From NCBI GenBank assembly GCA_017538365.1, contig JAFYIZ010000037.1, forward strand, positions 1 to 41,970: a stretch of DNA of 41,970 nucleotides, given 5' to 3'. Positions 34,544 through 41,871 of the stretch are shown piece by piece (the stretch's first letter is position 1; each line of letters opens with the position of its first letter). Both the position numbers and the translations under genes were made by a program. Under the pieces are notes generated by a model. The model was given only the letters and a program-made list of their open reading frames with translations, did no database searches and was not told the DNA's origin. Origin of the DNA: a bacterium (GTDB lineage Bacteria; UBP6; UBA1177).

Positions 34544-35191
34544 ATGCACAAAATTCTTTTAAGTTTCATAGTTTTATTACAGTTTTTCTTTGTTTTTGCC
34601 GATGATTCCGAACAAAAAAACGAGAAAAAACAGGCAAAATGGGAATTTGTAAGCGAAAAAGACGGTCTTAAACTCTACGAAAGGAATCATGAAGGTTCCG
34701 AAATCAAGGAAGTTAAGGCCGTCGTCACTTATCAGGGAACAATTCAGGAAGCGGTCGATATAATGTTTGACAGGCTGAAACATCCGGAAATATTTAAATA
34801 CATAGAATTCTCCGATGTTCTCAAAAAGAACGACAGATGCGACTGGTCATACAACCGGCTTTCCGTGCCGGTGGCAACAAACCGTGACTACTACGTCAAA
34901 TCGTGCCGTGTCGACAACAAAGACGGTTCTGTTTCGATAACGTGGGTTCCGTTCGACGATCCTAAGTATCCGGTGACCGACAAATATGTCCGTGTGACCG
35001 ACAACAAAGGGTTCTACAAATTCACTCAGGTCGAACCCGACAAAATAAAGGTCGATTACTATATTTACAGCGATCCGGCCGGTTCTCTTCCAGTTTTTGT
35101 CAAGAACATCGCTTCAAGACAAGCCGTTACCGATACTTTGTGGACACTTCACAAAGAAATTATGAAGCGCCGCGCGGCATCAAAAAAATAG
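34544..35191 (+). CDS. Secreted START-domain (lipid-binding) protein
   Basis: 215 residues. Signal peptide MHKILLSFIVLLQFFFVFA, cut before DDSEQ. Residues ~30-210 form a START/SRPBCC domain: WEFVSEKDGLKLYERNHEGSEIKEVKAV, a middle strand with DWSYNRLSVPVATNRDYYVKSCRV, and a C-terminal helix ASRQAVTDTLWTLHKEIMKR. START domains bind lipids or sterols in a deep pocket; bacterial secreted members are known but poorly studied. It lies 17 nt after the aminopeptidase gene, with no visible ribosome site beyond GGTTTTTTC, so it may be translated from the same transcript. A link to the MlaE/MlaC lipid traffic is plausible but unproven. Confidence 0.78.
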   Translation: MHKILLSFIVLLQFFFVFADDSEQKNEKKQAKWEFVSEKDGLKLYERNHEGSEIKEVKAVVTYQGTIQEAVDIMFDRLKHPEIFKYIEFSDVLKKNDRCDWSYNRLSVPVATNRDYYVKSCRVDNKDGSVSITWVPFDDPKYPVTDKYVRVTDNKGFYKFTQVEPDKIKVDYYIYSDPAGSLPVFVKNIASRQAVTDTLWTLHKEIMKRRAASKK

Positions 35192-35230: not shown

Positions 35231-35545
35231 ATGTCCGATTTCTCAACAAAAAAAACGCCGAAGCGTTCGATTGAAACAAATATCAAACTGAAAGAACCCG
35301 ATCTTTACAAAGTTGTGATGCTCAACGACAATTTCACCACGATGGAGTTCGTCGTCGAAATTCTTGTCGACATTTTCGGCAAAAGTGAGGCGGAAGCCCG
35401 CAAAATCATGCTTGCAGTCCACAAGCAGGGGCGGGGAGTCGCAGGAATTTACGTCTACGACATTGCAGTTTCAAAAATCGCGCAGGTGGACGAAGCGGCG
35501 AAAAAGAAAGGTTTCCCGCTTAAATGTATCGTTGAAAAGGAGTAA
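35231..35545 (+). CDS. clpS: ATP-dependent Clp protease adaptor ClpS
   Basis: 104 residues. ClpS captures proteins with N-degron residues (Leu, Phe, Trp, Tyr) and hands them to ClpA. Marks: YKVVMLNDNFTTMEFVVEIL (N32-D33-N34 gate of the pocket), the MLAVHKQGRGVAGIYVYDIA helix and strand with the His that contacts the degron amino group. The usual NDD is NDN here, a conservative change. Length is normal with a flexible N-terminus. It starts after TTGGAG and lies 2 nt before clpA, the classic order. A leucyl/phenylalanyl transferase (aat), which makes such degrons, is 5.6 kb away. Confidence 0.95.
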   Translation: MSDFSTKKTPKRSIETNIKLKEPDLYKVVMLNDNFTTMEFVVEILVDIFGKSEAEARKIMLAVHKQGRGVAGIYVYDIAVSKIAQVDEAAKKKGFPLKCIVEKE

Positions 35546-35547
35546 CT

Positions 35548-37800
35548 ATGGCGGAAAAAGATAATATGTCGCTGCCGTTTTCCTATGAAGTGGCGAAGAT
35601 TTTCAGTATGGCGATTGAGGATGCGACCGACAACAAAGACGAGTTCGTAACACCGGAGCATCTTTTGTTCCAGCTGCTTTTTAACCGAAAAGCCATTGAA
35701 ATTCTTGAACATTTTGATGTTGATGTCGCAGAAATGAGGCAGAATATCAGGGAATATTTGGAAAAATATGTTCCGAAAAGCTCTAAAAACGGTCGCGTTG
35801 TTCCATCTGAATATCTGAACATGTGCCTTCTCGATGCGGCGAATAATGTTTTCGGCTCGCAGCGTACCCGCGTTGAAGTGACCGATCTGATCGTCGCGAT
35901 TTACGACTTGGGCGACAAATCGTATTCCTCGAGTCTCCTCAAGGCAAACAACATAAAGAGGTACGACCTTTTGAGCGCGATTGCACACGGCGGATTTTCC
36001 GAAACTGAAAAGCCGGAAGAACCGAAAAATGTTGAAGCAGCTCCCGAAGAGACTGAAAAAACGCCTTCCGCGCTTGAACTTTTCACGGTCGATCTTACCG
36101 AAAAAGCCCGTTTGGGAGAGCTTGATCCGATAATCGGCAGAGAAGACATCATCGGGCGGACGATCCAGATTCTTTTAAGGCGCAAAAAATGCAATCCTGT
36201 TCACATCGGTGATCCGGGAGTCGGCAAAACCGCAATAACGGAAGGTCTGGCTCAGAGAATTGCAAAAAATGATGTGCCGAAACAGCTTCAAGGTTACCGC
36301 ATTCTTTCACTCAACATTTCCCGCCTTATCAGCGAATGCAGGTTTGTGGGCGATCTGGAGCGGACGATGAACAAACTCGTCTCCGCATTGAAAAATGAAG
36401 AAAAAGTAATTGTTTTTATTGATGAAATCCATAATCTGGTCGGTGCCGGCAGTGCGGGAAATTCATCGATAGATGCAGCCAACATCCTGAAACCTGTTCT
36501 TGAAGAAGGAACGATAAAATTTATCGGAGCAACGACCGCAGCGGAATACAGAAAGTTTTTCGAGAAAGATTCAGCTCTTTCAAGAAGATTCCAGAAAATA
36601 AATGTTCCCGAACCTTCAAAAGAAGAAACTTTCCTGATTTTAAAAAGTCTTGCCGAAAAATATGAGTCCTTTCACAAGGTTAAATACAGCGACGAGGCTC
36701 TGCACGCGGCAATAGAGCTTTCTTCGCTTTACATCAATGACCGTTTTCTGCCAGACAAGGCGATAGACCTAATTGACGAGGCGGGAGCGGCATGCAACAT
36801 GCAGGCTAAGAAAATAAAAGTCGTTCGTCCTGAACATATTGAAAAAGTTGTCGCATTTCTCACCGGAAAAAAGGAAAACGGTGTAAATTCCGACAGAATG
36901 AAGCAGCTCAAAGGGCTTGATTCAGCTCTTTCGACTGAGATTTTCGGTCAGGACGAGGCGATTTCCGAGATCGTTCGGGCAATAAAAAAGAGCTATGCAG
37001 GATTCAAAAATCCCGAAAAACCGGTCGCATCATTCCTTTTTGTAGGCTCAACAGGAGTCGGAAAAACGGAACTCGCCCGCGTTCTTGCAGACAAAATGGA
37101 TATGCCGCTCATCAGATTTGACATGAGCGAATATCAGGAAAAACACACGGTTTCCAAACTTTTCGGCGCGCCTCCAGGATATGTCGGATATGAAGAGGGC
37201 GGATTACTCACCGAAGCTGTCCGCAAACAGCCGACATCGGTCCTTCTTCTTGACGAGATTGAAAAAGCGCACGCCGACATTTACAATTCGCTTCTTCAGA
37301 TCATGGATTATGCGACTCTGACTGATAACGCAGGTCGCAAGGCAAACTTTAAAAATGTAATAATTATAATGACTTCCAACGCAGGAAGCAGGGAAGTCGC
37401 AAAAAAACAGGTTGGATTTGAATCCCGTTCGGGAAATACTTCCGCTTTAAAAGAGGCTGTCAAAAATACGTTTACACCTGAGTTTTTAAACAGACTTGAC
37501 CACATTGTTTATTTCTCGCGCATAACGCCTGAAATCGTTAAGAAAATCGTTAAAAAGAATGTCTCAGCCCTTGCATCAAGGCTCGCAGCAAGGAATATTG
37601 AGCTTTCAATTACAGAATCCGCAGTCGCGCACTTGGCTGAACTTGGTTTTTCGCCTGTTTTCGGTGCGAGAGAGACGGCACGAGTAGTGGACAAGGAACT
37701 CGAAAATCTCCTTCTTGATGAAATTCTTTTCGGAAAATCTAAAAACGGAGGAAAAATAAAAATCGATTTTAAAAACGGAAAACTTATAACTGTTAAATAG
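35548..37800 (+). CDS. clpA: ATP-dependent Clp protease ATP-binding subunit ClpA
   Basis: 750 residues, normal for ClpA. The N-domain (~1-145) binds ClpS. Module 1 has Walker A GDPGVGKT (~221-228), and Walker B FIDEIHNLVGAG (~290-301). Module 2 has Walker A GSTGVGKT (~500-507), LLLDEIEKAH, and the loop VGF (~622-624) in AKKQVGFES, the equivalent of the IGL/F loop that docks onto ClpP. The C-terminal small domain closes with FSPVFGARETARVVDKELEN. There is no ClpB-type middle coiled coil. ClpA unfolds substrates into ClpP, which is not in this window. It is followed 10 nt later by the lipoprotein deformylase. Confidence 0.95.
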   Translation: MAEKDNMSLPFSYEVAKIFSMAIEDATDNKDEFVTPEHLLFQLLFNRKAIEILEHFDVDVAEMRQNIREYLEKYVPKSSKNGRVVPSEYLNMCLLDAANNVFGSQRTRVEVTDLIVAIYDLGDKSYSSSLLKANNIKRYDLLSAIAHGGFSETEKPEEPKNVEAAPEETEKTPSALELFTVDLTEKARLGELDPIIGREDIIGRTIQILLRRKKCNPVHIGDPGVGKTAITEGLAQRIAKNDVPKQLQGYRILSLNISRLISECRFVGDLERTMNKLVSALKNEEKVIVFIDEIHNLVGAGSAGNSSIDAANILKPVLEEGTIKFIGATTAAEYRKFFEKDSALSRRFQKINVPEPSKEETFLILKSLAEKYESFHKVKYSDEALHAAIELSSLYINDRFLPDKAIDLIDEAGAACNMQAKKIKVVRPEHIEKVVAFLTGKKENGVNSDRMKQLKGLDSALSTEIFGQDEAISEIVRAIKKSYAGFKNPEKPVASFLFVGSTGVGKTELARVLADKMDMPLIRFDMSEYQEKHTVSKLFGAPPGYVGYEEGGLLTEAVRKQPTSVLLLDEIEKAHADIYNSLLQIMDYATLTDNAGRKANFKNVIIIMTSNAGSREVAKKQVGFESRSGNTSALKEAVKNTFTPEFLNRLDHIVYFSRITPEIVKKIVKKNVSALASRLAARNIELSITESAVAHLAELGFSPVFGARETARVVDKELENLLLDEILFGKSKNGGKIKIDFKNGKLITVK

Positions 37801-37810
37801 AGGTAACATT

Positions 37811-38506
37811 ATGAAATCATTTGCAAAAATGTTCACAACTGCACTTTGTGCACTTCTCCTTTTCTCATGCGCTACGGCTCCGAAAACTGAAGGAAAAGAA
37901 AAAACTGATGACGGTTTAATGACTGCCGAAGAAATCAGCTACATCAATGACACTTCGGCAAGGCATCTTCTTCAGAACGATGTCGAAAAAGATAATGAGA
38001 TTTTGAGAAAGGTTTCTGTTTCAGCAAAATTGGGAGCAGATGGTTACGATGTTCTTGAAAAATTCATGCTTGAATCTTTGGGAACCGGAGTAGGGATTGC
38101 GGCTCCGCAAGTCGGTATAAACAGGCGAGTAATCATGGTCCAGAGATTTGACAAGGAAGAAAAACCGTTTGAATTTTTTTACAACATAGAGATCAAAAAA
38201 ACATACGGCGAAAAGGTGGTTGGCTGGGAGGGCTGCCTCTCTATTCCGGCAGGTTTCGGACAGGTCGAAAGGTGGCAGGATATAGACATCGAATACGATG
38301 CCGAAGTCGATGGAAAATTAGTCCGCAAAAGTGAAAACATAAAAGGGTTTACGGCTGTTATTTTTCAACACGAAACGGATCACTTAAACGGCATTCTTTT
38401 CATCGACAAAAAGACTGATGATCCTTTGATGACTGCCGAAGAATACCGCGAAATGCGAATGAAAGAAAAGGCTGAGAAAGAAGCAAAAGAACAAAATAAG
38501 GAATAA
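37811..38506 (+). CDS. Peptide deformylase with lipoprotein signal peptide
   Basis: 231 residues. Deformylases remove the formyl group from nascent Met in the cytosol; family length is ~165-190. All three catalytic motifs are intact: GVGIAAPQVG (~93-102), EGCLS (~140-144, metal Cys) and HETDH (~187-191). Unusually, the N-terminus is an export signal: MKSFAKMFTTALCALLLFSC with lipobox LFSC (C20), so the enzyme would be lipid-anchored in the periplasm or outer membrane. An upstream in-frame start is excluded by the clpA stop 10 nt before, and AGGTAAC is the ribosome site. A linker of ~60 residues separates anchor and enzyme, and a Lys/Glu-rich tail ends it. The cytosolic deformylase should be encoded elsewhere. 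Confidence 0.88.
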   Translation: MKSFAKMFTTALCALLLFSCATAPKTEGKEKTDDGLMTAEEISYINDTSARHLLQNDVEKDNEILRKVSVSAKLGADGYDVLEKFMLESLGTGVGIAAPQVGINRRVIMVQRFDKEEKPFEFFYNIEIKKTYGEKVVGWEGCLSIPAGFGQVERWQDIDIEYDAEVDGKLVRKSENIKGFTAVIFQHETDHLNGILFIDKKTDDPLMTAEEYREMRMKEKAEKEAKEQNKE

Positions 38507-38526: not shown

Positions 38527-39237
38527 ATGAATTTACTTTTACTCGATAGAAGTGATCTGATCGCTGAAAATAAGGCGGAAATTTCCGGCGAAAAAGTTCA
38601 TCATCTTAACGAAATTTTGAAAGTGAATGCCGGTAACGAGATCAAAGTCGGCATTTTAAACGAAAAAAAAGGAAAAGCTGTAATTGAAAAAATTGAAACG
38701 GAAAAAGCAGTTTTATCGATTGAGCTTAACGAAGAAGCGCTACCCAAAATTCCTCTTTTTGTGATAGTTGCGCTAGCCAGACCGAAGGTCCTTTCTAGAC
38801 TTATTTCCGACCTTGTTTCCTACGGAGTTTCCGGAATAGAAATAATACAGACTTATTTTGGAGACAAAGGTTATTGGGAAAACGAATTGTTTACAGAAAC
38901 TGGTCTTAAAGAAGCTGTCGTCAAAGGTCTTGAACAGAGCATGGACACGATCATGCCGAAAATCAGCTTAGTCAAGCGTTTCGGCCCTTATTCAAACGAT
39001 ATTCTGCCAACATATCCAATAAATTCAAGCTGTTACATTGCTTTACCCGGTGATTTCCCAAAAATCGGCGAAATAGAGAAGGGAAAATCGAATATTATTG
39101 CAATCGGTCCCGAAAGAGGCTTCACAAAATACGAAGCCGCACAATTCATCAAGGCAGGATTCCAGCCCGTTTCACTCGGAAACCGCGTTATCAGAACTGA
39201 AGCCGCAGTTCATGCGTGCGTCGCTCACTTTATTTAA
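38527..39237 (+). CDS. rsmE: 16S rRNA (uracil1498-N3)-methyltransferase RsmE
   Basis: 236 residues. RsmE is a SPOUT methyltransferase that modifies U1498 of 16S rRNA in the assembled 30S subunit. The N-terminal PUA-like domain (~1-75) includes KVHHLNEILKVNAGNEIKVG. The SPOUT part shows FVIVALARPKVLSRLISDLVSYGVSGIEII, the knot region IIAIGPERGFTKYEA (usually GPEGGF; Arg replaces Gly here) and PVSLGNRVIRTEAAV at the C-terminus. Start ATG is 20 nt after the deformylase with only a weak ribosome site (AAAAG). Its last 8 bases overlap the end of the convergent polyferredoxin gene. Confidence 0.9.
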   Translation: MNLLLLDRSDLIAENKAEISGEKVHHLNEILKVNAGNEIKVGILNEKKGKAVIEKIETEKAVLSIELNEEALPKIPLFVIVALARPKVLSRLISDLVSYGVSGIEIIQTYFGDKGYWENELFTETGLKEAVVKGLEQSMDTIMPKISLVKRFGPYSNDILPTYPINSSCYIALPGDFPKIGEIEKGKSNIIAIGPERGFTKYEAAQFIKAGFQPVSLGNRVIRTEAAVHACVAHFI

Positions 39238-41151: not shown

Positions 41152-41175
41152 CCCGCGTTTTTTGTGCGGAGCGTG

Positions 41176-41871
41176 ATGATTTATTATTTGTCGAGAAATT
41201 CAATCGGTTTTCCACCGGTCGAAAACGCTGAACCCGACGGTTTTTTAGCAATCGGCGGTGACCTGAGACCTGAAAGGCTGCTTCTTGCCTACAAGTCGGG
41301 GATATTTCCGTGGTATTCTGATGAAAGCAGGATCTCGTATCAGGGAAGCAAGATTTTGTGGTGGTCTCCCGATCCCCGTTTCGTCCTTTTTCCAGAAAAG
41401 CTCCACGTCTCAAAAAGCATGAAAAAAGTCCTCAAATCAGGAAAATACACAGTGACTATAAACACCGCATTCCCGCAGGTCATAAGCCGCTGCCGCCACG
41501 AAGTGCGGGTTCATCAGGAAGGGACCTGGATAACTGACGACATGGAAAAAGCCTACAACCGCCTTCACGTTTTAGGTTATGCTGTGAGCGTCGAAAGCTG
41601 GCTTACAGGCACTGACATCCTCGCAGGAGGACTTTACGGCGTGATGATAGGGAAGGCTTTTTTCGGCGAAAGCATGTTTTCGACTTATCCCGACGCCTCG
41701 AAAACGGCATTCATTACTTTTGTCGGCAAACTCCGTGAAATAGGCTGCCCCGTGATCGACTGCCAGGTCGAGACCGAGCATTTGAAGTCGTTGGGTGCCG
41801 AATTCATCCCGCGGAAAGAATTCCTCAAAATCGTAGGAGTTGCGGCTGAAGCGGGAAGAGTGGATTTTTAA
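41176..41871 (+). CDS. aat: Leucyl/phenylalanyl-tRNA-protein transferase
   Basis: 231 residues from ATG 41176; a GTG 12 nt earlier covers the ribosome site and follows the transcription start too closely. Aat adds Leu or Phe from aminoacyl-tRNA to proteins with N-terminal Lys/Arg (or Met), producing N-degrons for ClpS-ClpA. Marks: FPPVENAEPDGFLAIGGDL, the GIFPWYSD motif, LWWSPDPRFV, GTWITDDMEKAY, VESWLTGTDILAGGLYGVMIGKAFFGESMFS and DCQVETEHLKSLGAEFI, all typical, and the length is normal. It is divergent from the activase operon and has its own good promoter. Confidence 0.95.
   Translation: MIYYLSRNSIGFPPVENAEPDGFLAIGGDLRPERLLLAYKSGIFPWYSDESRISYQGSKILWWSPDPRFVLFPEKLHVSKSMKKVLKSGKYTVTINTAFPQVISRCRHEVRVHQEGTWITDDMEKAYNRLHVLGYAVSVESWLTGTDILAGGLYGVMIGKAFFGESMFSTYPDASKTAFITFVGKLREIGCPVIDCQVETEHLKSLGAEFIPRKEFLKIVGVAAEAGRVDF

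What the first reader, a model, noticed from the sequence alone, without database searches (positions are those of the whole stretch)
37811..38506. Catalytically complete peptide deformylase exported as a lipoprotein
Seen: all three deformylase motifs are intact, but the protein begins with a full signal peptide and lipobox LFSC, placing the enzyme outside the cytoplasm. Known: deformylase acts on nascent chains at the ribosome, so an exported copy has no textbook substrate. It follows clpA by 10 nt. Inference: it may deformylate secreted N-formyl peptides, which are strong alarm signals for animal hosts, or it may have drifted to another amide-hydrolase role.
Basis: partly seen in the sequence, partly recalled or inferred. 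Interest (0 to 1): 0.7.

Follow-up and report, generated by a model that had tools for sequence, protein, structure and literature searches.

The report
Exported lipoprotein peptide deformylase family
A peptide deformylase, an enzyme otherwise known from inside the cell, here carries a conserved lipoprotein export signal and belongs to an apparently undescribed branch of exported deformylases found in several bacterial phyla, almost always beside an ordinary cytosolic copy.

Summary
ORF 37811-38506 (231 aa) has all three deformylase motifs and an N-terminal signal peptide with lipobox LFS|C. It is not an oddity of one genome. The genome has a separate ordinary Def plus fmt, lgt and lspA. The lipoprotein copy occurs in 24 of 25 genomes of the order (candidate phylum UBP6), the lipobox Cys is invariant, and the enzyme domain is under strong purifying selection. 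Searching outward gave one clade (100/100 support, long stem) of exported deformylases in UBP6, Myxococcota (6/117 genomes sampled), Bacteroidales (20/149) and Flavobacteriaceae (25/151). Essentially every member has a lipoprotein or Sec signal, and 15 of 16 carrier genomes checked also hold a canonical Def. AlphaFold gives a confident deformylase fold. Best reading: a membrane-anchored, probably periplasm-facing deformylase that removes formyl groups from N-formyl-Met peptides or N-termini outside the cytoplasm. Its purpose is unproven: peptide salvage, or clean-up of N-out proteins and signal-peptide debris. The host-immunity idea is weak: UBP6 is reported from anaerobic digesters, many carriers are free-living, and Bacteroidota members lack the surface-export signal. 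I found no published description in the open-access library. New variant of a known kind.

The parts
37811..38506 (+). CDS of the exported (lipoprotein) peptide deformylase, 231 aa
   Evidence: Pfam PF01327 E=1.3e-30
37800..37803 (+). Shine-Dalgarno GAGG, 7 nt before the ATG, overlapping the last base of the clpA stop codon; GAGG-type spacing kept in orthologues
37811..37867 (+). signal peptide codons 1-19 (MKSFAKMFTTALCALLLFS)
   Evidence: predicted helix 3-19, then a low-confidence linker, in the model
37868..37870 (+). lipobox Cys20 (predicted lipidated, mature N-terminus)
   Evidence: invariant in 21 orthologues; lgt and lspA present in the genome
38087..38110 (+). deformylase motif I GVGIAAPQ (residues 93-100)
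38228..38242 (+). deformylase motif II EGCLS (residues 140-144; metal ligand Cys142)
38369..38383 (+). deformylase motif III HETDH (residues 187-191; metal ligands His187 and His191, catalytic Glu188)
35231..35545 (+). clpS, upstream neighbour (probable same transcription unit)
   Evidence: Pfam ClpS E=4e-32
35548..37800 (+). clpA, immediately upstream; neighbour in part of the genus only
   Evidence: NCBIfam ClpA E=2e-285; synteny
38527..39237 (+). rsmE-type 16S rRNA methyltransferase, immediately downstream in most family f1 genomes

Best explanation
This is a member of a monophyletic family of extracytoplasmic peptide deformylases. The pre-protein is exported by Sec, lipidated on Cys20 by Lgt, cut by LspA, and anchored in an envelope membrane, probably facing the periplasm. 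The metal site (Cys142, His187, His191) and Glu188 hydrolyse the N-formyl group of formyl-Met N-termini there, releasing formate. The most likely use is clean-up or salvage of N-formyl-peptides: signal-peptide fragments, fMet-bearing segments of N-out membrane proteins, and peptides from dead neighbours. Once deformylated these become substrates for aminopeptidases and peptide uptake. Shown by sequence: intact motifs, conserved signal, single clade, deformylase fold, coexistence with a canonical Def. Inferred: location, activity, substrate and purpose.
For: Intact motifs and Pfam/fold match (pLDDT 94.3, 57 best matches all deformylases, TMt up to 0.88). Lipobox in all orthologues, Cys20 invariant. 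Lgt and LspA present. Separate canonical Def in own genome and in 15 of 16 carrier genomes, plus Fmt, so the housekeeping role is already filled. Exported rows form one clade, 100/100, stem 0.93 changes per site. Signals are present throughout the family in UBP6, Bacteroidota and Myxococcota. dN/dS 0.03-0.19 in the domain. Residues at the E. coli Met-pocket positions stay hydrophobic (F180, V183, I184). Bacteroidota members lack a surface-export signal. UBP6 is reported as amino-acid-degrading anaerobes. Formyl-Met is expected outside the membrane (PMC5454389).
Against: No biochemical or localisation data. Gene context is not conserved, so nothing points to a pathway. Family-specific invariant residues (VQR.DK..P.E, Thr181) could mean a shifted substrate. 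Patchy distribution in Bacteroidota argues against an essential maturation role. The window protein falls just under the NCBIfam equivalog cut-off for peptide deformylase (98.3 vs 103.95 bits).
Confidence: 0.6

Rival explanations
1. Exported deformylase whose main job is maturing the cell's own envelope: it deformylates fMet N-termini of N-out inner-membrane proteins that SRP shielded from cytosolic Def. Mechanistically the same enzyme, with a different purpose.
For: SRP blocks co-translational deformylation, and N-out proteins are proposed to keep fMet (PMC5454389). Vertical conservation within the UBP6 order, 24 of 25 genomes.
Against: Patchy in Bacteroidota (25/151 and 20/149), although all such bacteria have N-out proteins. 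If sorted to the outer membrane (non-Asp +2 residue, by the E. coli rule) it would be far from inner-membrane N-termini.
Confidence: 0.2
2. Host-facing immune masking: it destroys secreted N-formyl peptides so that animal formyl-peptide receptors are not triggered.
For: Some carriers are gut Bacteroidales MAGs.
Against: UBP6 is reported from methanogenic reactors. Many carriers are free-living marine or soil bacteria (Saprospiraceae, Reichenbachiella, Lutibacter, Tamlana) and Myxococcota. No surface-export signal in Bacteroidota members.
Confidence: 0.05
3. Neofunctionalised amide hydrolase: deformylase fold and metal site kept, but the substrate is not formyl-Met (another N-formyl or N-acyl compound, or a formylated peptide antibiotic), or it sequesters hydroxamate deformylase inhibitors as a decoy.
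For: Long stem (0.93) and family-specific invariant residues Q111, R112, D114, K115, P119, E121, T181. Motif variants inside the family: EGDLS in Chryseobacterium/Epilithonimonas/Elizabethkingia, DGCLS in some Bacteroidales.
Against: All catalytic and oxyanion residues are kept in the window's clade, and residues at the Met-pocket positions remain hydrophobic.
Confidence: 0.15
4. Ordinary cytosolic deformylase with a misread N-terminus.
For: Met37 is an in-frame possible start after the lipobox.
Against: Shine-Dalgarno placement at the first ATG, universal signal peptide in the clade, invariant Cys20, and a separate canonical Def.
Confidence: 0.02

Closest known systems
Canonical bacterial peptide deformylase (Def/PDF; Pfam PF01327, TIGR00079; e.g. 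Leptospira 1sv2/1szz, Thermotoga 1lme, Synechococcus 4dr8)
   Same: All three motifs, metal ligands Cys/His/His, catalytic Glu, oxyanion Gln, fold
   Different: Signal peptide and lipobox; own clade with a 0.93 stem; VQR.DK..P.E and FTAVIFQHE signatures; window protein below the TIGR00079 cut-off
Organelle-targeted deformylases (plant PDF1A/1B, Plasmodium PDF, human mitochondrial PDF)
   Same: Deformylase with an N-terminal targeting extension (structures 1zxz, 3m6o, 1rl4, 3g5k appear; targeting from general knowledge)
   Different: Those are moved to compartments with their own ribosomes and nascent chains; the space outside the inner membrane has none
Phage-encoded deformylases (RIIA-RIIB-associated 3uwa; IMG/VR hits)
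   Same: Accessory copy of the same fold
   Different: Of the top viral hits, nine were read and none had a signal peptide; they act in the host cytosol by inference

Membership tests
Peptide deformylase superfamily (PF01327) | Motifs GxGxAAxQ, EGCLS, HExDH | tested here: met
Peptide deformylase superfamily (PF01327) | Deformylase fold | tested here: met
   AF2 mean pLDDT 94.3; top PDB matches are all deformylases
Peptide deformylase superfamily (PF01327) | Metal-dependent hydrolysis of N-formyl-Met peptides | not testable with these tools
   needs an enzyme assay
Housekeeping co-translational deformylase (TIGR00079 equivalog) | Score above the curated equivalog cut-off | tested here: not met
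   98.3 bits vs 103.95; groups apart from the canonical Defs in the tree
Housekeeping co-translational deformylase (TIGR00079 equivalog) | Cytosolic, acting at the ribosome | tested here: not met
   conserved signal peptide and lipobox; the genome has another Def without signal; prediction only, no localisation experiment
Bacterial lipoprotein | Signal peptide with lipobox and invariant Cys | tested here: met
Bacterial lipoprotein | Lgt and LspA encoded in the genome | tested here: met
   lgt read in L069:1821-2738; lspA by PF01252
Bacterial lipoprotein | Lipidation and membrane location shown | not testable with these tools
   needs labelling or fractionation
Surface-exposed Bacteroidota lipoprotein | Lipoprotein export signal K-(D/E)2 after the Cys | tested here: not met
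   1 of 65 Bacteroidota members has two or more acidic residues at +2 to +6; for about ten the script took an earlier Cys than the lipobox one, so the count is approximate. The rule is not established for UBP6

The most novel reading that the evidence does not exclude
Several diderm phyla run a second, extracytoplasmic deformylation step in the periplasm, made by a dedicated clade of lipoprotein deformylases; N-terminal formyl removal would then not be confined to the ribosome. In part of the clade (Chryseobacterium and kin, EGDLS) the metal-binding Cys is replaced by Asp, perhaps as an adaptation to an oxidising compartment.
Probability: 0.6. Interest if true: 0.75.

Novelty: new variant of a known kind. 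Interest (0 to 1): 0.62.

Why it matters
Deformylase is a textbook ribosome-associated enzyme and a drug target. A conserved clade placed outside the cytoplasm would mean a formyl-Met economy in the envelope: where fMet peptides come from, how long they last, and how they are recycled. It makes an open question testable, namely what becomes of fMet on SRP-routed membrane proteins and signal peptides (raised in PMC5454389). These genes appear simply as peptide deformylase in family models, so multi-copy counts and inhibitor-target predictions may be misread.

Tried and rejected
Misread start codon: rejected (Shine-Dalgarno, conservation). Only deformylase in the genome: rejected. Functional link to ClpS/ClpA (N-degron): the adjacency is limited to part of the genus; in L053-L055 clpA is not upstream, and the order-level loci have other neighbours, so it was not used. 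Neighbour clustering over about 90 loci gave only lineage-specific synteny, e.g. a ChaN-like gene in Chryseobacterium and ruvX in Sphingobacterium. Phage or plasmid origin: nine of the top viral hits were read and are signal-less; of 792 plasmid records only one match covered at least 80% of the query, at 30% identity, and it was not followed. Literature: phrase searches for periplasmic, secreted or lipoprotein deformylase found nothing, but the library is open-access only. Phylum sample around G360 gave 2/248; fewer candidates per genome were scored there than in the family search, so I rely. Members with odd starts: L116 (a GTG start gives lipobox LVGC) and L138 (no standard start seen). L228 was labelled canonical in the tree, but it is the exported gene of that genome (identical to L079).

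Full report
Check of the finding. The ORF 37811-38506 on the + strand is real: ATG start, GAGG 7 nt upstream, 10 nt after the clpA stop. Its 231 residues hold GVGIAAPQ, EGCLS and HETDH and match Pfam Pep_deformylase at E=1.3e-30. The N-terminus MKSFAKMFTTALCALLLFS|CATAPK is a lipoprotein signal peptide by inspection (no SignalP available).

Own genome. The window is G000:C40, a 2.32 Mb assembly, 97.6% complete. A PF01327 search finds exactly two genes. The other (G000:C30:12497-12988; L069:4489-5079) is an ordinary Def without signal peptide, close to prfB, lgt and ychF. fmt is present elsewhere, as are lgt and lspA. So the housekeeping formylation cycle is complete without the lipoprotein copy, and the lipoprotein pathway exists.

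Relatives and identity. G011 is in the same genus as the window genome, so the window belongs to candidate phylum UBP6 (proposed Ca. Asafiota, PMC13248872). Two searches and the truncated copy in G017, which runs off its contig end, put the lipoprotein Def in 24 of 25 genomes of the order. It was not found in three genomes of another family of the phylum. All orthologues have a lipobox, and Cys20 is invariant along with all catalytic residues. Within the genus, dN/dS is 0.03-0.19 in the domain and 0.25-0.59 in the signal and linker. clpA lies upstream in part of the genus, and rsmE lies downstream in most of family f1; outside that the neighbours differ.

A wider family. A scan of named genomes returned close relatives in Bacteroidota and Myxococcota. 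Reading their N-termini showed lipoprotein or Sec signals throughout; the two exceptions are start-codon uncertainties. In a domain-wide sample the profile scores were bimodal: 223 bits or more for exported genes, 137 or less for the rest. Only one of about 360 genomes outside UBP6 carried one. Targeted samples gave 25/151 in Flavobacteriaceae, 20/149 in Bacteroidales and 6/117 in the Myxococcota sample. Of 16 carrier genomes, 15 also have a canonical Def; the exception is a 1.3 Mb MAG. A maximum-likelihood tree of 150 sequences puts all exported ones on one side of a 100/100 branch of length 0.93; the one 'canonical' row inside is a mislabelled identical copy of L079. UBP6 and Myxococcota sequences group together, with modest support, apart from Bacteroidota.

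Structure and active site. AlphaFold with 39 exported sequences gives pLDDT 94.3 with a helix at 3-19 and a loose linker. Foldseek's best matches are all deformylases. By alignment to E. coli Def (sequence verified), the metal ligands, Gln, Glu and the LS of motif II are kept. Residues at the Met-pocket positions are Phe, Val and Ile. Family-specific invariants lie in VQR.DK..P.E and at Thr181. In Chryseobacterium, Elizabethkingia and Epilithonimonas the metal Cys is Asp (EGDLS), and some Bacteroidales have DGCLS; no such change occurs in UBP6.

Mechanism. Inference from established knowledge: the protein is exported unfolded by Sec, lipidated and anchored, and loads metal outside. Candidate substrates exist there: N-out membrane proteins escape deformylation because SRP blocks Def, and signal-peptide fragments may stay formylated (PMC5454389). 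Bacteroidota members lack the surface-export signal (PMC5080379), so they probably face the periplasm; the Cys position was taken crudely by script in about ten cases. UBP6 are reported as amino-acid degraders in methanogenic reactors (PMC7382037), which fits peptide salvage. Patchy occurrence fits an accessory trait better than essential maturation. None of this is shown experimentally.

Comparison and novelty. It is a member of the deformylase superfamily by motifs and fold, but not of the housekeeping equivalog by score, by tree or by predicted location. Open-access literature searches found no description of such a family. I rate it a new variant of a known kind: the enzyme is familiar, while the conserved extracytoplasmic clade is, to my knowledge, not described.

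Noticed in passing
window 34544-35191: A START-domain protein with an apparent signal peptide (Pfam START E=1e-6), i.e. an exported START-type lipid-binding protein.
   Followed up: no
window 35231-37800 and 41164-41871: clpS, clpA and a leucyl/phenylalanyl-tRNA-protein transferase (aat; identified by eye) lie within 7 kb: an N-degron pathway cluster around the exported Def.
   Followed up: partly
L105, L109, L140 and other Weeksellaceae loci: Exported Def with EGDLS: the metal-ligand Cys is replaced by Asp across Chryseobacterium, Elizabethkingia and Epilithonimonas, with a Sec signal without lipobox instead of a lipoprotein signal.
   Followed up: partly
L096, L098 (Sphingobacterium): Exported Def with an N-terminal DUF1684 domain (PF07920, E=2.8e-42, tested on L096): a fusion that may hint at the function of DUF1684.
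   Followed up: partly
L077 (Bacteroidales): Exported Def reads in frame into a flavin-reductase-like domain (PF01613); could be a fusion or a lost stop codon.
   Followed up: no
L271 (Bacteroidales): Tandem exported Def: the first domain has degenerate motifs, the second is complete but with DGCLS.
   Followed up: no
L069:4489-5079: The canonical Def of the window's genome has GLGIAGPQ in motif I (Ala to Gly), shared by most of the genus.
   Followed up: no
plasmids collection: Def homologues on 792 plasmids, 584 of them Klebsiella; those listed cover about 60% of the query and are annotated def. Plasmid-borne spare deformylases are common.
   Followed up: no
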